A stretch of 64,000 nucleotides of DNA from Sphaerolaimus hirsutus. Its lineage: Eukaryota > Nematoda > Chromadorea > Monhysterida > Sphaerolaimidae. This document shows positions 30,701 to 64,000 of the stretch, piece by piece. The stretch lies in assembly GCA_964036195.1 (NCBI GenBank), contig OZ038453.1:20311206-20375205 (forward strand). The letters run 5' to 3'. A program made the translations under genes and the position numbers. The notes beneath the pieces were generated by a model. That model had not been told where the DNA came from, ran no database searches, and was given only the letters and a program-made list of their open reading frames with translations. Position 1 is the stretch's first letter. Each line of letters begins with the position of its first letter.

Positions 30701-33700
30701 TTTTTATTAAAAAACGTTGCTTTTATTCAAAGCGCCCATATATGGCTTTGTGTGAACATATATAGGTATATCAGACAAGTGACTATACTCTGTGATGTTA
30801 GACATGACCATCTAATGGCTGTGGAACCATGGGATAGCATTATAAGTGGTGATTTGTGTCAAAAATAGGGTTGGAAAAAAAACGTTTTTTTTAACTCGAT
30901 GTTTTTTTTATTTAAAAAACGTTGTTTTTTAAAAAAAACGTTTTTTTTAAATAAAAAACGTTTTTTTCTTAAAAGCTCCCAGATATGACCTTGTGTCAAC
31001 ATATATAGGTATATCAGACAGTGGCAATACTCTGTGATGTTTTATATGACCATATAATGTCTGTAGAGCCATGGGATAGCATTATAAGTGGTGATTTGTG
31101 TCAAAAATATCCATTTTTCGTCGACATATTGTTCCTATATCGCCTTATAGTCGAATGTTCGTGACTTCAGGTAAAGTTTGGCACGGAATAGTGATCAAAC
31201 AAGGTTATAAAAGGAGGTTGTTACTTTGGGAGTGAAGTTACACACTGTGGAGTTATGTCAGAAGCACATTACCTCAATATTATATACTACAGCAACATAT
31301 GACGGCTTATTAACCCATGGTAGCACATAGAAATGGATGCTTTGATACTCAAATGCCACAAAACCAATGAAAACAACCACCAATGTCAATTTGTGTGTGA
31401 AATTGCGCGCAAAATTTTTGCAAAATACCTAGTGCTAAGTACTAAAAATTTCTAATTTCGATGTTTTTATTAAAAAAACGTTTCGGACATCGTGCTTTAA
31501 AGAAACAAACACATTTTTTGAATAAAAACGTTTGAAAAAAACATCCGCCAACCCTAGCCAAGTTTCAGATAATTTGTTTAAGGTAATTTACATAATAATT
31601 TCAAAAAATGGAGCGGCGCTCTTCTATTAGAAGAAATACGGTATTTACCTCCCAACACCAAATTTATATCGTTCCAAATTTACCCCCCCCCCCCCCTCCT
31701 CGCAGATCGCAACTCAGAAGAGTACAAGAAACGGAAGGCGTTGAAAAAACAATTGAATGACAGAAAATCGCTGCAGGATGAACACTCCAGAAAAATCGAC
31801 AAACACATTAAAAACAAAAACAGGCACAGTGAGGGGTTCAAGTGAGTTGACTACTGATGTCAGTCCCAGACCCTGTGATGTTTAAAGTGTCTAATGTTAT
31901 GTAAAATGTCAATAAAAATACAAGATCTCGTTACTCAATTTTGCATGACAATTGACACTTTACTTTACATTTGTCATGACAATTGACGGTTTGCATTACA
32001 TTTGACATTTTACTTCACACTTTACAGGTTCTGGGACTGCCCCCACGGGTCTCGAAGATCTGGATGTTGTGTTGGGGTTTTTATAAATAGTAAATTTCTA
32101 ATTAAACGGCTGTTTTCGAGCGTTGTAAAAGTTAAGAACGAAAATTATACAAATATAAAATTTTTGACAGGTGATAAGTGGGCGAGTAATTCGGTATCCT
32201 GTAAAGTGTTTAGTGAAGTGTCAAATGTCGTGTAAAATGTCAATCAAAACAAAAAATATTTATTACATGACAATTGACACTTTGCATGACAATTGACAAA
32301 TTTGTATGCCATTAGCAGGGTTGGCAAAATCGCAGAAAAAAATAAAAATAAAATAAAAATAAAATGGAAAATTTAAGAATAAAATAAAATAAAATAAAAT
32401 GGAAAATTTCAAAATAAAAATAAAAATTGTATAAAAATTCAAATTTTTGTAAAATTTTTGTAAAATTGTATAAAAATTCATATTTTTGTAAAATTGTATA
32501 AAAATTCATATTTTTTGTAAAATATTTTTCTTGATGCTTGAGTTTCTACGTGTTTATTCGTGGAACCCAAGCTTTGTAAAGTCTCAAATGTCATGTAAAA
32601 TGCCATGCAAAGTGTCAATTGTCATGGAAAATAACTAGTAAAGTGTCAATTGTCATGACAAATATAAATTAAAGTGCCAATTGTCAAGCAAATTGTATCC
32701 AGATTTTATGTTTTGTATCAAAATCTTACATTCTGTATCCAAATGTGGATACATAAACATAAGATTTGGATACAAAAACATAAGATTTGGTTATACAATT
32801 TACATTTTCCATGACATTTGACATGACACTTGACATTTGCATGACAATTGACACTACTTTACATTTGTCATGACAATTGACACTTATAATGACATTTTAC
32901 AAATGTGCCCAGCACAGTCCAGGGGCCAGATCCAGAAAATGAGAAGTGAGAAGTGAAATGGCAAAGACAAAGTAAAAGCGCAAAGGCCAAGCAGCTGCCT
33001 TCAGCCTTTCTGACTTCGCCTTTGCTCTCTTACTTCGCCTTTGTTATTTCACTTCTCACTTCTCAGTTTGCGGAACTGGCACCAGCAGTCCTTTAAAAAA
33101 TGCAAACCATTGTTATCAATAATTGTAAGTTTACACTTGCTGCTAGCTAACAATACCTACTGCATGCAACTTTTGTAAAGTAATGGAAAAATTTGTCACA
33201 AGATTTCATGTATAATGTCTAATGATGAAGTTTTTCTGGCATTGCATGCATGATTCTGATTTTTTGTAAAAAATTTGTAAAATTAATGTAAAATTTTTGT
33301 AAAATGGGTCATTTTATTTTATTAACGACTTTTGGGAATAAAATAAAATAAAATAAAATGAAAGAAGAATAAAATAAAAATAAAATAAAATTTTTATACA
33401 ATTTTTATACAATTTTACTAAAATCAATTTTTATAAAACCAACCCTGGCCATTAGTGATGACATTTGACACTTGACTTAACACTTTCCAGAGCTTTGAAC
33501 TGGCACCAGAAATAAAATTAGTGCCGATGAAAAAATGAAAAATAGAAAACCCCTGAAAAATCCCCCCCCCCCCCGCAGACAGGAGAAATCGGCAAAACGT
33601 CACTTCCTACCCTCTCCAACGAAACGTCGCAAATCCGTAGCCTACAACAAAGACAATATCGACCTTTTGCATATCCCGCTGGATATGGGCTGGACCAGGG

Positions 33701-36700
33701 AATTGTCCATTAGAGCGCAACCGGCAAAGAAATACGGGGACGTTTACTACTGGCCCCCCGGGCGTGGCAAGAAACTGCGGTCCATGAAGGATCTTGAAAC
33801 TTGGCGTTAGTTTGGGGGGTGCCACTTTTTTAGGGGGGTTTAATTTTGCTGAAATTGTCTGTACCGTGCAAGGTAAATCAGAATTCCCGCTTCCACTTAC
33901 AATTCCCGATGTTTTTTTCCTATGCGATATATGCCGCCTCAAATATCTAGTGCCAGTTCCGCGAATTGAGAAGTGGAAAGTTAAATGGCAAATGCGAAGT
34001 AAAATGGCTAAAGTGGAGTGTAATGGCAAGTAGATTGGCAAAAGCGAAGTGAAAAAGGTTTCTCGTCGCTTTTGCCATTTTACTTCTCAATTCACTACGC
34101 TTTTGCCATTTTACTTCACATTTGCCATTTTACTTCTCACTTCTCAATTTGCGGAACTGTCCCCTGTCCCTGACCACTGCCACCCTTTCAGTGTGTATCT
34201 CACTTGAAAAGTGCTGTTTTATCGTTCACAAAGTTCCGTATTTGAAAAAAATAAGAAACTTTTTTCCAGTGACCGAAAATCACCGACAGGCCGGCGAACT
34301 GGAACTGAAACACTTCAGTTTCCGTGACAAAATTGAAGATTTGGAACACGACAATTTCCAAGTGCATCGAGTCGACGGACGTTCCGAAGCAAAGACTGCA
34401 ACAACGGGAAAATCGCCAAAGACGCCAAAAAGCAGTTCCAGTAGCAGCGCGAAATTGTCAGTTATCTTTTCCAGAATGTCTCCCATTTAAGTCAAATTTG
34501 GACACTTTTTGACAAATTAAAAAGTTGAAAGAAGTTTGGTCTACATTGGGAAAATGGTTAAATCCAGCAGATAACAACTATCCAGAAAGTCGATAAATCC
34601 ATTGTGGACAGTGATGGTAGATGGCAGATTCCTCTGTATAGCGTGCGGTCATTAAACCTTTTTATTTTTTTTGCAGATTACTGAACTGATTTTACTCCCC
34701 CCCCCCGTTTTTGCAGCAAAAGCAAAGATATCGTGAACGACAGTGACAGTGATAGCGATGGGCTGAAACATGCTAAAATGGATGGTACGTTATTTTTGTG
34801 TCAGTTGAGTAATGAATGCTTTATACCGAGGACGTAGCCAGGGGGGGGGGGCGGGGGGGGCGGCCGCCCCCCCCCCTTCCCGGGTCGGACCAAAAAATAT
34901 GCCCAAAATGGCACTTCCATCAAGCGATTTTGTCGGCAGTTCGAAAAAATTTTGCGCGCGAGCGCGCATTTCGGCACCGCACAGTATATTCTGGTCATAC
35001 TTAGGTTTAGGACCAAAAAAACACTCAAAATGTGTTCCGTTCGCTGTATATGTATGTAAAATACATACATGTACAGACCCATTTGGCGCCAATGCCAACG
35101 CCAATGGCGCCATGGCGTCGCGCCTACGAATGGCGCTGGCGCCAAGGCGCCATTCCCTTACCACAGCGGTCAAATTTTGGGGGGGGGGGCGCCGCCCCCC
35201 CCGTTCGCCGAGCTCCGTATACAATCCGCCCCCCCCGCTCAAAAATCCTGGCTACGTCCCTGCTTTATACCATTTGAGTGAACGCGCAAGTATTTATTTT
35301 TTATGTGTTTGACTGCTGTGCATCTAAGAATATTTAAGTCGTGCTTATAAGTAGTTTTTTATGATAAGATTCCGCCGCTATGGGTCGCAAATGGGTAGCA
35401 AACAGCCAAAAAGAGGTATCGCTAAAACCTTCATGCTACTCATCATACCAGCTTGCATAAAACAGTAATTAAAAAAGAAAGAATTTTTGCCTGGGCACAA
35501 AATGCATCGCCGCAGTGAGGGCGCGCGCGAGCAAAATTCACGAGTGGGCGGAGCGTACAAGAAACGAGAAGCTGCACGAAGAATGTGCGTTCCCTGTATA
35601 AAGCTAATTATACTTTTTACCAGTATTTTTGTGTAAACAAAATGATCTAAGCTCCATCCACCGGGACATTTTAAAAAAGTTTTAAATAATAGTTCGAACA
35701 ATTTTCAACGGAAAACCCAGACTCTTTTCAACACAATTGACCCCACCGATTTCAGATGACTCGCTCGCGGATTTTAGCTTGGATGCTATTGCGGCTTCTA
35801 CACCGGCCACCGATAAAAGTTTGTTGCTGTTTGTAAAAGTTTGTATTCAATGCTGGGCCATGATAATATTTATGGAGATGTTATCATGTACTAGTTGCAC
35901 AAGTGACAAAACTTCTACATCTCTTTCACGCAAGGGCCAAAAATTTGTAAGAAAATCATTCATATTTATGTGATAATTAAACCCTCAAAAGAAAAAACCC
36001 ATAATTTATCAGATCATATAATGAGCGTCATTTTCCAAGTCATAAATCTCTTTGGATTTGAGTGGTATGCCATTGGCAAAATGCTTGATAACAAAGGGTT
36101 ATTGACAGAATGTTGAGTGACGTTTATGTTATAAAGTTTACTTTTCATGTTACTAGTTGACATTGGAATTTTTATTATTCTAAGTGTTGACATTGGAAAA
36201 TATTTATTGATATGTTATTCTGTGCGGAAGGACCGGACCTTATCTTGGCTGTCCCTTATGTATGAGTAAAATTTTAAAAATGCTCATGCATTGATCCGCT
36301 CTATTATTAATTAAATTAAATTAAATTGTTGCGTAGTTTTTTAAAACTTTTCAGGAATTTGCATGCGGAAAATCTAATTTGAAAAAAAAATCTTTTTCGA
36401 CGCTGGGAGTTTATTTTTTTAATGTTTAGATTGTGCCCGTTATCTGTGTTCAAGGGGTATACACTTTTTCTGAAAGCCGGACATTTGGAGGGAACCTGTA
36501 ATAAGAGGGCGGATAAATCGAGCTAAGGTCTCCCACTATCAGAAATGTGTCGACTTTTGGATGTAAAAATATTTTTCAAATTGCAATCATATTTTCCCAT
36601 CAAATTTGCTAAGCTATTTTACCATCTGTAAATCCTTTCAATTTCAATCAATTTTTTTTTTTTTCAGAACCGTCAAAAAGGGTTGCGAAAAAATCGGCCG

Positions 36701-56016: not shown

Positions 56017-59000
56017 GTGAGTGCCTACTTCAAACTTTCCTTCAAAATAAACTCACAAAATCACAAAACTTCACAAAAAAACTTCACAGTTCACTCGTAC
56101 TTGACAGCAGCGTGTACACCGCTTCACTGACAGATCACCGTTTGCAAAGTCACAACAAAATCGCCGAAACGATCGGTTCAAATGCGAACCCGGATTTTGG
56201 CGCGAGTAATGGCGCGGAAATGGACAGTGGCGCTGGCGCCATAGGCGCGTTGGCGCTGCACACTTCGAAGGAAATTGAGCACGATGCTCAGGTGTCAATT
56301 CCGCAAATGTACAAGTGACACGATTACTGGTAAATGACAAGTTAATTTGTTACTGAAAAAAGTTGTCACTTTTTAGTTCAAAGTTCACTTTGTGACTTTA
56401 CTGATCACTTACCACTTTTCGAGTCATTTTTTCTACTTTGTGGAATTGGCCTCAGGTGGAAAAGATCAGAAATGTGACGCATTTGCTGGAAAGCGTTTTA
56501 TTGGGCTATGATAAGAATCTCAGACCCAACGCATACGGTGTGTAAAACTTATGTCGCATTGCCAGTTGCACTTGGCAAAGTTCCAATTTAACGAGTTGCC
56601 CAGTGAGTTTCATTCGCAGCCGGCACCCGCGATATAGTGTCCATTGATATTTTGATCCGCTCCATGGGGCCCATTTCTGAAAGGGAGGGTTCCTTCGCTT
56701 TGGATTGCTACTTCAGACAATCTTGGAACGACCCCAGGTTGGTTTTGTGCAGCTTATTTTGCAAATTTCTTGTACCGTATTTGTTTGAATAATTCCCCAT
56801 CTGCATAATTCCCTCTTTGTTAGACGTGTGATGAAAAATTATCCCCCCCCCCCTTGAATAATTTCCCCCTGACGGCCTTACGATCCATTCCATGTGTTGT
56901 GTCCAATTTTAACAAAAACGGCATGTTATTGTGTTTCGTGTAATGAATTTAAGGTATATAAACATGCTTAAAAAATGTACGAAATAATTCCTCCCCTTGA
57001 ATAATCCCCCCTCATAAAAATCTGACGAAAAATAATTGCCGGGGGAATTATTCGAGCAGATACGGTATTTCTTTTAGCATAAATCGATCTGCGCAGGCTG
57101 CAATTTTCATCCGAATCCATGCAAGTGCTCTCGTTGGGCATGTCGATGCTGGACAAAATCTGGAAGCCGGACACTTATTTTTGGAACGGCAAGGGCTCTT
57201 ACCTGCACAAGTTGACGCAGCCGAATAGATTGGTATGTTGAGGTAATTGCAAATTAAAAGTAAGTGCGCCTTGAATAACTCCCCCACCAAATAAACCCCG
57301 CTGGGCTCTTATTCAAGACCATACGGTAGCACTTTCGAAAACAAATCCACAAAACAAAATATCGTCGCAGGTGCGCTTGAAAACCGACGGCACAGTGTTA
57401 TATTCTTCTCGGCTGACGATCGTGGGCAAGTGCAGCATGGATTTGCGAAATTTCCCTCTGGATGCACAGTTGTGCCCGTTGCTGGTGGGCGGTTTAATGA
57501 GCCCGACACGTTTTGTCGGGTTGCCCGATTTATTGGGGATTTTATGTATGGTAGGATTTAAATACAGTTCAATTAGTAAAAATTAAAATACAGAAAACTT
57601 AAGAACTGGGTTGACTTTTTTTGTCTGTAAACATGAATAGTAAAATCTAATCTCAGAAAATCTCAGAAAGAGAAAATATATTCAAATGATTGAATCTCTC
57701 TGAAAAACGCCCAGCAATAATGTAAATAAGTGTAAATCCGTTATTTATTTAATCTTCCCATAAATGAGATACTTATACTCGGCGGACCGCAAAGTATGCG
57801 CCCTAAATTACTCATGTCTGAGTCTATAACGCGCGAGCGGGATACTTATGTACGCACTTCACAAAAATGAAAAATATTCCAAAAAAGAAAAGGCGGAGTC
57901 ACGTGCAAGCAACGAATGTTTTTCTCCCGAAATGTTTTTTCGTTTTTTTTTGTGGAACAATTTTTCTTTTATTGACGATGACGTGGTGGAGTGTTTCCTT
58001 CAGAAAAATGCATAGCGTGCGGTCCGCGGAGTATACCTAAAATAAAATAATATAAATCTGCTGAGATTTTTGGAATGTCATGCGGCGTTATGCCCTATTC
58101 AATTGGCCAGCGTGAATACAATTTCGAATACCTATTTCAAATCATCGGGCTGCCTGAAGAAAAGGCGGGGCTTATTAAATTTCGTCCCTGATTGGCTCCT
58201 TCGCTTATACCAGTGAAGAAGTCTTGTACAACTGGACTAGACAGCCGTGTGTTTGGGTGTTTTTTATAATTGTGAGCATTTTTTAATCGCACTTGAGTGA
58301 CATTTTATGTTGATTTCAGGTTGCATAACCCCACGATTCAATGTGTTTCGTATAGAAATCTAAAGTACTGTCATCCACATGAAATTACACTTGAATTTGC
58401 ATAAACACATGCTAAAATGCGTAAATTTTTATAAAGGTTGCACCTCTTCTATCAGATACTGATGATGGATAGCAAATATGGCATAGGCCTAGTACTCATT
58501 TCAACCCATTGGTAATCTAAACCCGCTGCTCACATATACCACTTATTGGGGGTGTAGATGAGCTGCTCATCTATGCGTGCTAATTCCCTGCCCATTGCAC
58601 ATCTACGCTCCCCCAACTAGGGGTATAGATGAGCAGTGGGCATAATTAGATGATAAGTGGGTCTTGATATGCGATGGGTTTAGATGGCTATCACACAGGG
58701 TTGTGAATATGATAACAGATGCCTCAAACTTCATGCCTTTTCTTACTTTTTATACCTACTAATGTACCTTCTTGGCACAGTTCCAGCAACAACGAACCAC
58801 CAGTTTTGATCGAACGTGGCTCAAAAATGGCGCAATTTTCGGTCGCTTCAGTTCAAACTGACAATGGCCCGGCAGGTTTCAGAGACGAGCATTTTAGCTC
58901 CTTGGAAGTGCATTTCGTTTTAAGGAGATATATGGGCTATTTTGTGATCAATTTCTATTTACCCTGCACTATGGTGGTGTTATTGAGCTGGTGCCAATTT

Positions 59001-62000
59001 CAGAAGCGAAAAAGTGACAAGAAAAGTGGAAAGTTATGATTGGTTAGATAAGTGGCAGGCAAATTGATAAGTGACAAGTAAAGTTGTTAAAATAGTGAAA
59101 ATACTTGTGACTTATGAATGCTTGCCACTTGATTAACCAATAACGTTATTATTTACAATGTATACATTTTACCACTTTACCTGTCACTTGTTCACTTGCG
59201 AAATTGGCCCCAGGGTAGCTTTTTGGATCAATAGAGAGGCAACTGCGGATAGGATTGGATTGGGGGTGACTTCTGTTTTGACGATGACTTTTTTGAGCCA
59301 GGACAGTAGATCGGATGTGCCCAGGGTCCGTTTGGGAATGGCTGCCTCTTTCTTTCATCAATTGTTGCTTTTATTTGGGTAAAGATATTTCGAAACTTTG
59401 CCATTAAGCCGGAATTAGAGCTCAGCGTCGATTCGACGTGAAATGACGAAGTGAAATGACGTCGTGAAATTAATTACACGAGTGTGGATCATGCTACGGC
59501 TCTACAATTTTCTAAGGATAATATATGAATCAATACCTTAATCGTGTCCAATACTGAGTGTTATCGAGCCTGTAGCTGTACGCACAGAAACTCGGCACGC
59601 ACATAGCTGATGCCATGTGCGTGCCGAGTTTCTGTGCCTACAAAGTTAATGTGATTTTTCACATTCTCTTCTATTCTATTCCCTATGTAGCAGTAGTTGA
59701 CACCCGAAATTTTGCCAACCGTTACATCTGTTTTCTACATATTTGACTTTCGCGATTGTGAATGTAAAATATGTAGAAAACAGCTGTAACAGTTGATGAA
59801 ATTTCAGGTGTCAACTACTTCAACACACATGAAAATCCTGAACTCAGATGGCCGACTTGTCCGACAGGGCCCAGTTGTGTGCGTAACGGGCATCTGTGCG
59901 TGGCGGGTTTTGATTCTGTGCGTAACGGGCGCGTGTGCGTAACGGGTTTCTGTGCGTAATGAGCCTGGCCTGTGTTATCAGCCACAACTAGAGCGAATTG
60001 AAAAATTCAATTTTTATCATTTCACGTCATCATCATTTCACGTCACAGTGTCAGGGAACAACTTGACATTTCACGTCAGACTATTGCAAGCAGCAGTCTG
60101 ACGTGAAATGTCAAGTTGTTCCCTGACACTGTGACGTGAAATGATGATGACGTGAAATGATAAAAATTGAATTTTTCAATTCGCTCTAGTTGTGGCTGAT
60201 AACACTCAGTATTGGACACGATTAAGGTATTGATTCATATATTATCCTTAGAAAATTGTAGACCCGTAGCATTTCACGTCGAATCGACGCTGAGCTCTAA
60301 TTCCCGCTTTATCGATGCAGAATTTCATCATCAAAAGCAACTGACCGCATACATTGCAATCAAATCTACCATATCTCATCTGAATATACGACCAAACAAT
60401 TTTTTTCGTTAGATGACGTTACTCTCGGCATCGGTGAATTAGGCGCCGGTCAAAAATAGCGCCAAGCGCCAAAAGCGCCATGGCGTTTTTTAGTTTGGCG
60501 TTAGCGCCATGGCACTTTTACAACACTAGTCAGTAGATTGTAAATGTGGGCTGCCCGAAAAAATTTCTCGTGCCCACGAAAATTAAACCCGACCCGCAGG
60601 TATCCTACCCGACGGCACTGGACGTGTACATAATAATCTGTTTTGCATTTCTTTTTGCCGCCGTGCTAGAATTTGCCGCTGTGCACGTGCACACTAAATA
60701 CAATACTGGTGGGTTTAAAAAAACTTGTACCACTCCTTTTTACGACAGATTTTCGTTGTTTTTGAAAATATCTAGGTATTTCTAAAAACTTTTTTAAACA
60801 GGGGACCCGGAAACACGATATCTGGAACACGAGCGAGTGAATACCCGGCGCAGTTTCATACGCAGTGCCATGAGGCAGCACATGAGAAGGGTGGGGGTCG
60901 GTTTTTGGGGATCGGCGTTTTATTTTTTATTTTTTTAAAGGGAATATATGGTGGTCAATCTCCAATATTAGTCAACTTTGACAAAAATTGTCTGAGAAAC
61001 AGTGACAAAAGCCCCTAAATTTGTTGAAAATAATCAACCAGTTAACCAGAGTTCACACAATTCACTTAATTGGGCCCTATTCCAATTTGACACCATCTCA
61101 AAACTATTTTCAGACTACCCGCACTCAACAAGCTAACAAATCTAGCATGGGCGCACTTTTAGCCATGGCAACCAAAATCTCCATTCCAGCAGATATGGGA
61201 AACAAGCAAAATGTGTTTGGCGCATTGCCAAATGAAGGTGTAGAGAATGAAGGAAAAATTGAAACGCAAAGTAGCAGTGATGAAGAGAAAGATTGTAGAA
61301 ATGTTGAAAATCAATTGCATAATTCATTCACCCCTGTGAAAGTGCAGTGAGTTGGGACTGGGAGTTTATCTAAATATTGACATCAAAGTTGACATCAATA
61401 TTCGGGTGACATCAATAGCAATATCAATATCAATATCTAAACTCAATTAAATTTTGGTTGATTTTGTGATACAACATATTAACATAGTTAGTTTTGTATC
61501 GTGACACAATGTTCATCATTTTTGTCAAGTGTAATTCTCTAAAACAATTTTTGTATTATTTAGTTGGCATTCAGTTGACATTAATTTGCCATGTCAACTA
61601 GTGTCTGTGGGCCCTAACGTACACAAACAAGGAATTCCAAAAATGTCAATAATGACATCTTTTTAAAAAGCACTTATCCTTCACAAGCTGTGTTTTCGCA
61701 TAACCGATGCAAGCAGTCAACTTTGTGCAATTAAATTTGCACACTGCTCAGGCAAAAAGACGACCATTGCATGGTGTACAGGCCGTCGAGGCGCAGCACT
61801 TACTCGCACAAGGTAAACGTGTTGGTGATAGATTGCAGTTGTATTCCGCATTTTTCAGGTGTATTCTTCAGGGAGATAAGTGAGAAGAAAAGTGCTAAGT
61901 GACAAGTGAAGTTATAAGTGCTGAGTTAAGTGGCAAGTTATGTAGGGTTATCGTATTTTTCTTATAGAAGAGCGCCGTTCTACTCTTTTTCATCAACTTT

Positions 62001-64000
62001 TTGCCTGCCGTTCTATTGGAGGTGCCGTTCTATTGGAGGCTGCCATTCTATAGGAGGCTGCCGTTCTATTAGAAGAAATACGGTAGCTGTGATATAGATA
62101 TTAAAATTATTTCCATTTCCATTTTATGAATCAATAACTTGTCTATTGCCCACGTGACCAAAAACTACATACCGTATTTCCTCGAAATACCCCCCCCTCG
62201 AAATACCCCCCCCCTCGTTTGACCCCCCCCCCTCTCGAGACCACTATGAAACAATCACCCCCCCTCAAAATATCCCCCCAGTCAAGTGAGCATAAATATT
62301 TGATTGGCATCTACTTGTCAAGTGAGCGGAATTATTTGTGAAGTATCATATATTTATTTGTCAGCTGTCATGTTTTCCCTACTTGTCAACTGTCAGGTTT
62401 GTCAAGTGAGCATTGGCCCCCCAAATTGAGTGTAAAGAGAACGTACATGCCAAATACTGCAGTTTGTGTTCTGCGTAGTGCAGAACACACGTTAAAACAA
62501 TGTTGGAATCACGTTAGAACAGTGTTTATACCATCTACGTACTAATATTAGTATACAGGAGTTGATACATGTCAGTTATTGATGCAATTTTCTACCCCAG
62601 CGCACATCACAAACCACGATTTTGTACTAGGATTTCAAAAAATTTCCTGTGAAACAATAACCCCCCCCCTCGAAATACCCCCCTCGTTTAACCCCCCCCC
62701 CCTCTCGGGACCACTATGAAACAATCACCACCCGGGGGTATTTCGAGGAAATACGGTAGGACTTTTCTTAAAATACCTGGTGCCAGTTCCTCAAAATGAG
62801 AAATGAGAAGTGAAATGGCAAAGGCGAAGTAAAAGCGCAAGGCGAAGTGAAATGGCAAGTGAATTGGCAACTGAAATGGCAAAAGCGAAGAGAAAATACA
62901 TTTTATTTTTATTTCTTTTACTTCTCTTTTGCCATTTCACTTGCCAATTCACTTGCCGTTTCACTTTGCTTTGCGCTTTTACTTCGCCTTTGCCATGTCA
63001 CTTCTCACTTCTCATTTTTGCGGAACTGGCCCCCAGTTGTCAATTTCTTGTCAGTTTATAGACATCAACAAAATTGGTACACAATAAACATTTGTTCTCC
63101 TCAGAAAATGGCAGACTCAAAACAACTGTTGAACCAAAAGCAGCGCATGAGTAGCCCCACGTGTCTGGACATTCCGTCGACAAACCAAGGCACCCCACAT
63201 GCACATCGATACATGAAGTCGGTTTTCAACCAGAATGTTTTAAATTAAAGTTTTCGAACTATAGTATTTCCTCAAAATACTCCCAGGGGGTTTATTTTTT
63301 AGAGTGCAAATTTTGAGGGGGGTGTTGCGAGGGGAGGTGGCTTATTCGAGGGAGGGTTTATTATTTCTCCAGTAATTTTCAAGACGGATCGTAATAAACT
63401 TGAGGTTTTACATACCAAAAATTTGTAATAAACGTTATAAAACGGGATACATTAAACATATCAACGTAGATACCGTATTTCTTCGAAATACCCCCCTTGA
63501 AATACCCTCAGGTCTTTTCGCGCTGAGGAAAAAATACCCCCGCCCCCCTCGAAAAACCCCCGTCTGAAATGATGTACATCATGTATGCAATGTCTAAATA
63601 CCGTATTACCTCGAATTATCCCCCTTTGAATTAACCCCCTCGAATTAACCCCCCCCCCCCCTCAAAATGGGCTTGGGAAATAATAACCCCCCTCGAAATA
63701 TCTCCTGCGGCGGAATATTTCGAGGAAATACGGTAGTTACAAAAACTATTCAAAGCTTGCGTTGGCAACTACTGCTGGCCCCAAAAGTCTTGTCACTTCT
63801 CCCACCCACTAAACTCATATCCAACACAGAAAAGCCGCCCACAGCCGAATGGTCACCCCACCAAGTACTTCGCATCACTCTTTTAGCGCACTAGCGGACA
63901 GGCGCCACCGGCCCAGTATAGCCATGCGAATGCTGCAGACCGCGTCTAGACAAAATAGCGTCAAATTGATATATAGGAAATGGGTGTCCGATGGCAAAAA
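55994..64000 (+). CDS. GABA-A-type Cys-loop receptor subunit, GRD-like (3' end beyond window)
   Basis: Plasma-membrane ligand-gated ion channel subunit. Exons: 55994-56016, 56090-56291, 56456-56537, 56620-56737, 57097-57232, 57371-57484, 58191-58246, 58781-58990, 59214-59325, 60600-60708, 60802-60890, 61114-61346, 61752-61812, 63105-63217 and 63830-64000 (open). About 609 aa are seen. Order: signal peptide (MLSILYVLSLVLDSS); ligand-binding domain from LLGYDKNLRPNAYG through CYFRQSWNDPR and IWKPDTYFWN; Cys-loop CSMDLRNFPLDAQLC (13 residues between Cys); M1 GYFVINFYLPC; M2 with ATADRIGLGVTSVLTMTFL; M3 VSYPTALDVYIIICFAFLF; long M3-M4 loop. M4 is not in the window. ADR before M2 replaces the PAR/AAR of typical chloride channels. 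Splice phases agree throughout; only intron 6 lacks a normal acceptor. Confidence 0.88.
56292..56455 (+). mobile_element. Receptor intron 2, bounded by inverted repeats (candidate introner)
   Basis: The intron starts GTGTCAATTCCGCAAA and ends TTTGTGGAATTGGCCTCAG, an inverted pair that reaches both splice sites. Arms have the AAGTGACAAGT/CACTTACCACTT steps of the GGCCAGTTCCGC family. Confidence 0.65.
56773..57066. repeat. TACCGTATTTGTTTGAATAATTCCCC foldback in receptor intron 4
   Basis: Opens taccgtatttgtttgaataa and closes ttattcgagcagatacggta. Confidence 0.6.
57371..57484 (+). CDS. Receptor exon 6: Cys-loop
   Basis: Encodes VRLKTDGTVLYSSRLTIVGK, then the Cys-loop CSMDLRNFPLDAQLC and PLL. 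The family signature is complete. Donor ctg/gtgggc. Confidence 0.92.
57485..58190 (+). other. Receptor intron 6 with a non-AG 3' end
   Basis: Runs from ctg/GTGGGCGG to CGTCCCTG/att. GGCGGTTTAATGAGCCC near the start is inverted-related to GGGGCTTATTAAATTTCG near the end. Exon identity on both sides is firm, so the intron ends are not in doubt by more than a few bases. Confidence 0.6.
58191..58246 (+). CDS. Receptor exon 7 (no AG acceptor)
   Basis: Encodes IGSFAYTSEEVLYNWTRQ, which follows CPLL exactly as in the family (CPLxIGSxxY). The base pair before it is TG, and the nearest upstream AG is separated by an in-frame TAA. Donor cc/gtgtgt. Confidence 0.7.
58781..58990 (+). CDS. Receptor exon 8: pre-M1 and M1
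   Basis: Encodes ERGSKMAQFSVASVQTDNGP and on to LEVHFVLRRYMGYFVINFYL, PCTMVVLLS. GYFxxxxYxPC is the M1 signature. Ends in the middle of the Trp codon (tg/gtgcca). Confidence 0.9.
58991..59213 (+). mobile_element. Receptor intron 8, bounded by inverted repeats (candidate introner)
   Basis: Starts GTGCCAATTTCAGAAGCG and ends TTGCGAAATTGGCCCCAG. The whole intron is one element with AAAGTGACAAG arms; the GT donor and AG acceptor are supplied by its two ends. Confidence 0.7.
59214..59325 (+). CDS. Receptor exon 9: M2 pore helix
   Basis: Encodes VAFWINREATADRIGLGVTS and VLTMTFLSQDSRSDVPR. LGVTSVLTMT is the anion-type pore helix, while Ala-Asp-Arg at its cytoplasmic end puts an acidic side chain at position -1', as in cation-permeable members. 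Confidence 0.93.
59407..60309. repeat. Nested palindromes in receptor intron 9
   Basis: Outer arms (ggaattagagctcagcgtcg and inverse) of 110 bp or more enclose three further hairpins: about 59585-59640 (CTCGGCACGCACAT), about 59694-59820 (GTAGTTGACACC) and 59974-60203 (arms of about 105 bp). GTGCGTAACGGG is repeated at 59880-59960. Confidence 0.85.
60600..60708 (+). CDS. Receptor exon 10: M3
   Basis: Encodes VSYPTALDVYIIICFAFLFA and AVLEFAAVHVHTKYNT. The YPTALDVY opening is typical of GABA/glycine receptor M3. Confidence 0.92.
61114..61346 (+). CDS. Receptor exon 12: M3-M4 cytoplasmic loop
   Basis: Encodes a polar, variable stretch (TTRTQQANKSSMGALLAMAT, then QSSSDEEKDC). Acceptor tttcag, donor ca/gtgagt. 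The open frame fits both neighbours, but the loop is not conserved, so support comes from splicing and phase. Confidence 0.65.
61376..61616. repeat. AGTTGACA-type MITE in receptor intron 12
   Basis: Left side attgacatcaaagttgacat, right side gtcaactagtgtctgtgggc. Left end decayed. Confidence 0.5.
61950..62085. repeat. GTTCTATTAGAAGAAATACGG array
   Basis: Repeated GCCGTTCTATTGGAGGC steps closing with agaagaaatacggta. A related fragment lies at 31615-31650. Confidence 0.6.
62172..62758. repeat. CGAAATACCCC foldback in receptor intron 13
   Basis: Opens accgtatttcctcgaaatac and closes with the inverse. The middle matches 54953-55414, including acgttaaaacaatgtt. Confidence 0.7.
62781..63033. repeat. 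GTGCCAGTTCC TIR element, non-intronic boundary form
   Basis: Opens ctggtgccagttcctcaaaa and closes tttgcggaactggcccccag. Same ends and arm motif as receptor introns 2 and 8, but here it sits inside a larger intron. Confidence 0.7.
63474..63736. repeat. CGAAATACCCCC foldbacks in receptor intron 14
   Basis: Two overlapping units with TACCGTATTTCTTCGAAATA and TACCGTATTACCTCGAATTA openings and a closing gaggaaatacggta. Confidence 0.6.
63830..64000 (+). CDS. Receptor exon 15, running off the window
   Basis: Phase-2 continuation encodes AAHSRMVTPPSTSHHSFSAL, then SIAMRMLQTASRQNSVKLIY and RKWVSDGK. Still loop sequence; M4 must lie further on. Confidence 0.6.

What the first reader, a model, noticed from the sequence alone, without database searches (positions are those of the whole stretch)
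56292..59213. Two receptor introns are complete inverted-repeat elements (candidate introners)
Intron 2 (56292-56455) and intron 8 (58991-59213) start GTGYCAATTYC and end GRAATTGGCCYCAG. The inverted repeats reach both splice sites, so each element supplies its own GT and AG. The same ends and the same AAGTGACAAGT arms occur in elements away from splice sites (32925, 33949, 62781). This points to a DNA element that makes ready-spliced introns on insertion.
Basis: partly seen in the sequence, partly recalled or inferred. Interest (0 to 1): 0.86.

Follow-up and report, generated by a model that had tools for sequence, protein, structure and literature searches.

The report
Jumping DNA that becomes introns
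A short, very numerous jumping-DNA element in this animal genome has landed inside working genes, and the inserted copies appear to act as complete introns because the element brings the start signal and the copied landing site supplies the end signal.

Summary
Introns 2 (56292-56455) and 8 (58991-59213) of a GABA-A-type receptor gene are each one whole MITE copy. The family is large: 1,820 exact 5' ends genome-wide, control 0 and 1; 1,531 are preceded by CWG. The target duplication is CWG (3 bp): exon-CAG|GTGCC...GGCCC-CAG|exon.

Of 57 copies found by end patterns, I judge 4 to interrupt coding sequence with the frame restored by exact removal: granulin (Pfam reads across the junction), an acidic-repeat gene, and two in an INTS15 gene. 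Intron 8 looks like a gain: 32 of 37 paralogous matches read through its position.

Against: my codon test, retrained without each tested gene, leaves 2 of 66 copies at 5 or more instead of 5; L007 has an intron at or near the same place in a distant paralog; one INTS15 copy is CTG/CTG without a terminal AG; no RNA, sister species or transposase.

Verdict: introner-type introns made by a PIF/Harbinger-like MITE, a new family of a known kind. Host unidentified; no arthropod or chordate marker matched (one family each).

The parts
56289..56291 (+). left copy of the 3-bp target duplication (CAG), last bases of the upstream exon
   Evidence: target statistics
56292..56452 (+). MITE copy (161 bp) forming intron 2; GT is its first two bases
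56453..56455 (+). right copy of the target duplication (CAG) = 3' splice site of intron 2
58988..58990 (+). CTG left of the intron 8 element (differs from the right CAG at the W base)
58991..59210 (+). MITE copy (220 bp) forming intron 8, inside the TM1-TM2 coding region of the receptor
   Evidence: spliced protein aligns across the junction with GABA-A alpha-1; position uninterrupted in 32 of 37 paralogous matches
59211..59213 (+). CAG = 3' splice site of intron 8
32923..33082 (-). family copy without two-sided coding score, CAG/CAG on the + strand (CTG/CTG in element orientation)
33950..34163 (+). family copy without two-sided coding score, CTA left / CTG right
62780..63032 (+). family copy without two-sided coding score, CTG left / CCA right
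56456..56537 (+). receptor exon after intron 2 (VEKIRNVTHLLESVLLGYDKNLRPNAY...)
   Evidence: 3' border placed by eye
59214..59378 (+). receptor exon after intron 8 (VAFWINREATADRIGLGVTSVLTM...)
   Evidence: 3' border placed by eye

Best explanation
The two introns are insertions of a non-autonomous DNA transposon (MITE; median 223 bp with the target copy in 52 strict copies) of PIF/Harbinger type. It targets C-CWG-G and duplicates CWG. Inserted in sense into C-CAG-G of an exon, it yields ...CAG|GTGCC---GGCCC-CAG|G.... The GT is the element's first two bases, the pyrimidine-rich stretch is its right arm, and the AG is the second target copy. Exact removal returns the original exon, so the insertion is tolerated and kept as a new intron. 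Shown here: copy number, ends, target, reading frames restored by exact removal in several genes, and intron 8 missing from most paralogous matches. Inferred: cut-and-paste insertion by a Harbinger-type transposase, and actual splicing.
For: 1,820 exact 5' ends, control 0 and 1; 1,531 preceded by CWG. W equal on both sides in 19 of 24 copies with C-W on both sides (loci plus window); the same register tops both rankings of the scan (34 exact triplet matches against 20.0 expected, 66 copies). Independent support for coding on both sides: intron 8, the spliced protein aligns without a gap across the junction with GABA-A alpha-1; granulin, the Pfam domain (residues 20-57) spans the junction, E 1.2e-11; L073, the same CK[YF]R.SCY repeat stands on both sides; L007, both exons kept at 90-93% in a paralog; intron 2, codon score 9.1 with the receptor exons left out of training. 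All 7 cases judged coding carry stops in all three frames if retained; in 52 strict copies the stretch before the 3' end is AG-free for a median of 106 nt and 75% pyrimidine. Intron 8 position uninterrupted in 32 of 37 paralogous matches.
Against: No transcript data; splicing is inferred from frames. Retrained without each tested gene, the codon score keeps only 2 of 66 copies at 5 or more (intron 2; the CTG/CTG copy of L042), the other L042 copy has 3.8, and intron 8, L073 and L007 fall out of the top 14 (in one search, with their exons in training, 5 of 66 in sense and 0 in antisense). L024 scores higher in antisense (4.8) than in sense (3.4). The INTS15 Pfam match lies downstream of both junctions. 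L007 has an intron end at or near the same place in a distant paralog. W differs left to right in 5 of 24 copies, intron 8 among them. One copy in the INTS15 gene is CTG at its 3' end. AG lies only 15 nt (L042, 138 bp) and 32 nt (intron 2) before the acceptor in two cases. No transposase with these ends found.
Confidence: 0.82

Rival explanations
1. Old introns that were later filled or replaced by a MITE, so that the intron positions are ancestral and only the sequence is new.
For: L007: a distant paralog (38% identical) reads as an intron end (poly-C, then CAG) at or within about 5 codons of the same place, without the element; its upstream exon was not seen.
Against: A MITE landing in an existing intron would not end exactly at both splice sites in several unrelated genes. 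Intron 8 is absent from 32 of 37 paralogous matches. A downstream repeat of the L073 gene (35% identical) reads through the matching position.
Confidence: 0.1
2. Introns multiplied by reverse splicing of RNA (RNA-based introners, as proposed for fungi).
For: Similar introns lie in unrelated genes.
Against: Inverted ends and a 3-bp target duplication; 59 of 66 copies are not judged coding; CTG/CTG copies (10 of 66) do not look like spliced GT-AG introns.
Confidence: 0.03
3. Unspliced insertions that break the genes (pseudogenes or polymorphic knock-outs).
For: The CTG/CTG copy in the INTS15 gene has well-kept arms (87% identical, the median of 45 other strict copies) and no AG at its 3' end; L024 (90%) is also well kept.
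Against: Arms of intron 2 (53%), L007 (63%) and the 138-bp L042 copy (67%) are more worn than the 87% median while the flanking exons stay open; the receptor stays alignable with GABA-A alpha-1; the five INTS15 matches all lie at one locus.
Confidence: 0.05

Closest known systems
Introners of the DNA-transposon type (Gozashti et al. 2022, PNAS, PMC9860276; passages and section 11 seen)
   Same: Short elements with inverted ends and target duplications that coincide with whole introns in many genes; [quoted passage not shown]
   Different: Target CWG; most sampled copies are not judged coding here; [quoted passage not shown]
PIF/Harbinger (Tourist-like) MITEs
   Same: 3-bp CWG target duplication (criterion recalled; the one paper checked for it, PMC3579700, does not mention CWG), short inverted ends, high copy number.
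   Different: No transposase carrying these ends was found. 163 DDE_Tnp_4 matches exist (list cut); the 4 listed on C1 below 19.9 Mb are more than 100 kb from the nearest exact family end listed.
MITE-derived introns of the larvacean Fritillaria (recalled, not read)
   Same: Inverted-repeat elements forming introns in an animal, some with non-canonical borders.
   Different: Different host and ends; here 6 of 7 cases have GT-AG borders.

Membership tests
Introner (DNA-transposon type) | Similar sequences spanning whole introns in unrelated genes | tested here: met
   Receptor (2), granulin, L073, L007; INTS15 gene (2) on weaker grounds
Introner (DNA-transposon type) | Intron positions are new | tested here: inconclusive
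   For: intron 8, 32 of 37 paralogous matches uninterrupted, L073 repeat uninterrupted. Against: L007. Others untested, no sister genome
Introner (DNA-transposon type) | Copies are spliced from mRNA | not testable with these tools
   No RNA data; stops in all frames if retained
Introner (DNA-transposon type) | Terminal inverted repeats and target duplication | tested here: met
PIF/Harbinger MITE | 3-bp TWA or CWG target duplication (recalled) | tested here: met
   CWG left of 1,531 of 1,820 ends; W equal on both sides in 19 of 24
PIF/Harbinger MITE | Full-length relative with DDE_Tnp_4 transposase and the same ends | tested here: inconclusive
   163 transposase matches, none of the 4 comparable ones near exact family ends; only part of C1 could be compared
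hAT MITE | 8-bp target duplication outside the ends | tested here: not met
   Register scan of lengths 3-9: no such register among the top rows printed

The most novel reading that the evidence does not exclude
An animal lineage outside the groups reported so far carries a MITE family that may still be active and has made tens to hundreds of introns. It tolerates imperfect ends: CTG/CAG copies work, and a CTG/CTG copy in the only INTS15 locus found is removed as a non-canonical GT-TG intron (or through an in-frame AG 21 bases downstream).
Probability: 0.25. Interest if true: 0.85.

Novelty: new member of a known kind. Interest (0 to 1): 0.62.

Why it matters
How introns arise in animals is an open question, and animals supply few introner cases. 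Here donor, tract, acceptor and target can all be read from the element and its empty site, so single gain events can be dated and tested within one gene family. The C-CAG-G target is also what a proto-splice site looks like (recalled), which would give a mechanical reason for introns appearing at CAG|G.

Tried and rejected
Chance inverted repeats: rejected by shuffles. An 8-bp (hAT-like) duplication: not among the top registers. Intron 8 shared with all receptor paralogs: rejected. Harbinger transposase beside family ends: none of the 4 comparable C1 matches is within 100 kb of a listed exact end. Arthropod host: no Chitin_bind_4 match; chordate host: no Connexin match; the tool warns in both that nothing rang in its controls, so neither absence is proved. 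Two listings for the species by assembly size gave no match. The aa-composition ranking was too weak. The codon score was trained on exons of the genes it tested; the rerun leaving each gene out is much weaker and is the one to trust. Pfam was given 10 of the 40 junction-spanning frames: only granulin passed its cut-off; L073 (LAX, 24.2 against 27 bits) and L043 (Astacin, 17.1 against 22.5) stayed below. L075, L031, L055, L040, L047 and L070 were looked at as further introns and dropped, though L031 and L075 score as high as L042's weaker copy or L024. Exons of L042 had no PDB match, nor did L007 at a meaningful level. Receptor intron positions in other animals: nothing usable (listing only).

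Full report
What was claimed and what is there. Coordinates and ends are right. The local arm score of both introns exceeds all 1,000 dinucleotide shuffles, clearly for intron 8, less so for intron 2, whose ungapped end match is reached by 22 of 1,000. The product, joined by eye over the other introns, is a GABA-A-type receptor subunit: its best solved relatives are GABA-A alpha-1 chains (E about 4e-77), and it carries the ligand-binding and membrane domains.

The family. The exact pattern GTGYCARTTYCGCAAA occurs 1,820 times in the 348-Mb genome (926 forward, 894 reverse); read backwards it occurs 0 and 1 times. A pattern for a second subfamily, to which the two introns belong, gives 1,534 matches with up to 2 mismatches, control 0 and 0.

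Ends and target. Pairing the two ends in the fetched loci gave 66 unique copies: 27 from the loci, 21, 9, 6 in the window, 3; 52 of them start with GTG behind C-N-G. The 66 include some poor pairs, and many subfamily-B loci did not pair under my rule (9 unique copies from 30 loci). Left and right triplets are CAG/CAG in 24, CTG/CTG in 10, CTG/CAG in 9, CAG/CTG in 1, other in 22; loci were chosen with CAG at the right, so these totals are biased. In the sample not chosen for its right side (loci plus window, 33 copies), 26 have C-N-G left and C right; in 24 of these both middle bases are A or T, and they agree in 19 (11 AA, 8 TT, 4 TA, 1 AT). Genome-wide 1,531 of 1,820 ends are preceded by CWG; of the 27 whose letters were shown, 15 are CAG and 12 CTG. 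The same register tops the scan for longer duplications. I therefore read the element as GTGCC...GGCCC with a CWG duplication: the GT of the intron is the element's, the AG the target's.

Which copies are introns. I first used a codon score trained on 2.8 kb of exons of this genome: 5 of 66 copies scored 5 or more on both sides in sense, 0 in antisense. That set contained the tested exons. Retrained without each tested gene, 2 of 66 remain at 5 or more (intron 2 at 9.1, the CTG/CTG copy of L042 at 6.3) and 0 in antisense; above 3.6 there are 4 in sense and 1 in antisense; 12 to 16 of 3,964 random junctions reach 5. So this score alone does not carry the case. Independent grounds do for most: the receptor aligns across the intron 8 junction with GABA-A alpha-1; a granulin domain is read across the L024 junction (E 1.2e-11); L073 has the same cysteine repeat on both sides; both L007 exons are kept in a paralog. 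L042 holds two copies in one gene; Pfam names it INTS15 (34.6 bits, cut-off 27), but the match lies downstream of both junctions and the upstream exons alone had no match, so these two rest on open frames and scores of 6.3 and 3.8. The 5 INTS15 protein matches all lie at this locus. Of the 57 copies found through end patterns I thus judge 4 to be introns (L024, L073, two in L042); in the sample it is 1 of 27. The 7 cases in all (with introns 2, 8 and L007) are in sense, but only sense junctions were given to Pfam, and L024 scores higher in antisense (4.8 against 3.4), so orientation is not an independent test. All 7 have stops in every frame if retained.

Why it would splice. In 52 strict copies the stretch before the 3' end is free of AG for a median of 106 nt and is 75% pyrimidine between 60 and 12 nt before the element's end. 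Inverted arms explain it: a purine-rich left arm forces a pyrimidine-rich right arm. Two cases depart: AG 15 nt before the acceptor in the 138-bp L042 copy, 32 nt in intron 2.

Is the intron new? For intron 8 the test is the receptor's own family. Of 39 matches 2 are the gene itself; of the other 37, 32 read without a stop through the intron position, 4 contain stops, and 1 starts too close to tell. Two were read directly and are continuous. For L073 a downstream repeat of the gene (35% identical) reads through the matching position. For L007 the result is against: a close paralog is also split, and a distant one reads as an intron end at or within about five codons of the place. Intron 2, granulin and INTS15 could not be tested.

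Loose ends. One L042 copy is CTG/CTG: it is removed as GT-TG, or the first AG downstream is used (in frame, losing VKLDGEK), or it is not spliced. Intron 8 is CTG/CAG, so the right triplet either changed after insertion or was so from the start. Arms are worn in intron 2 (53%), L007 (63%) and the 138-bp L042 copy (67%), and near the 87% median of 45 other strict copies in the remaining four (80-90%). No transposase with these ends was identified.

What it is. It works like an introner of the DNA-transposon type and meets the structural criteria; splicing was not testable, and newness is supported mainly for intron 8. It fits PIF/Harbinger by its target (criterion recalled). Gozashti et al. (PMC9860276; passages and section 11) find introners in two taxonomic groups among animals and land plants and describe elements that carry the 5' site and co-opt the 3' site. 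Passages of PMC10597677 name Oikopleura as an early introner case and claim an introner-like intron in a bdelloid rotifer gene. My searches (capped listings with abstract starts) showed no paper on this family; that is not proof that none exists. One family each gave no arthropod or chordate match; the species is not identified.

Noticed in passing
window 59403-60312: A nested set of long, nearly perfect inverted repeats (116 nt at 98% with 2 nt between the arms; 75 nt at 99%; 43 nt at 95%) downstream of the exon after intron 8; perhaps another, larger inverted-repeat element.
   Followed up: no
L042 (C1:2399524-2401338), INTS15 gene: A family copy with CTG on both sides interrupts the coding sequence of the only INTS15 locus found; a candidate non-canonical GT-TG intron or a damaging insertion.
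   Followed up: partly
L101 and 163 matches in the genome: Many near-identical Harbinger-type (DDE_Tnp_4) transposase copies; most listed matches carry the same 4 TGA stops, and in the one read, L101, stretches with stops break the match, consistent with introns of their own; no end of this MITE family was found in L101.
   Followed up: partly
L022/L023; L037: Family copies also sit in near-identical, apparently duplicated flanks (L022/L023), and two copies lie next to each other in L037.
   Followed up: no
66 paired copies: Mismatched triplets are CTG left / CAG right in 9 and the reverse in 1, though part of the sample was chosen with CAG at the right; the asymmetry is unexplained.
   Followed up: no
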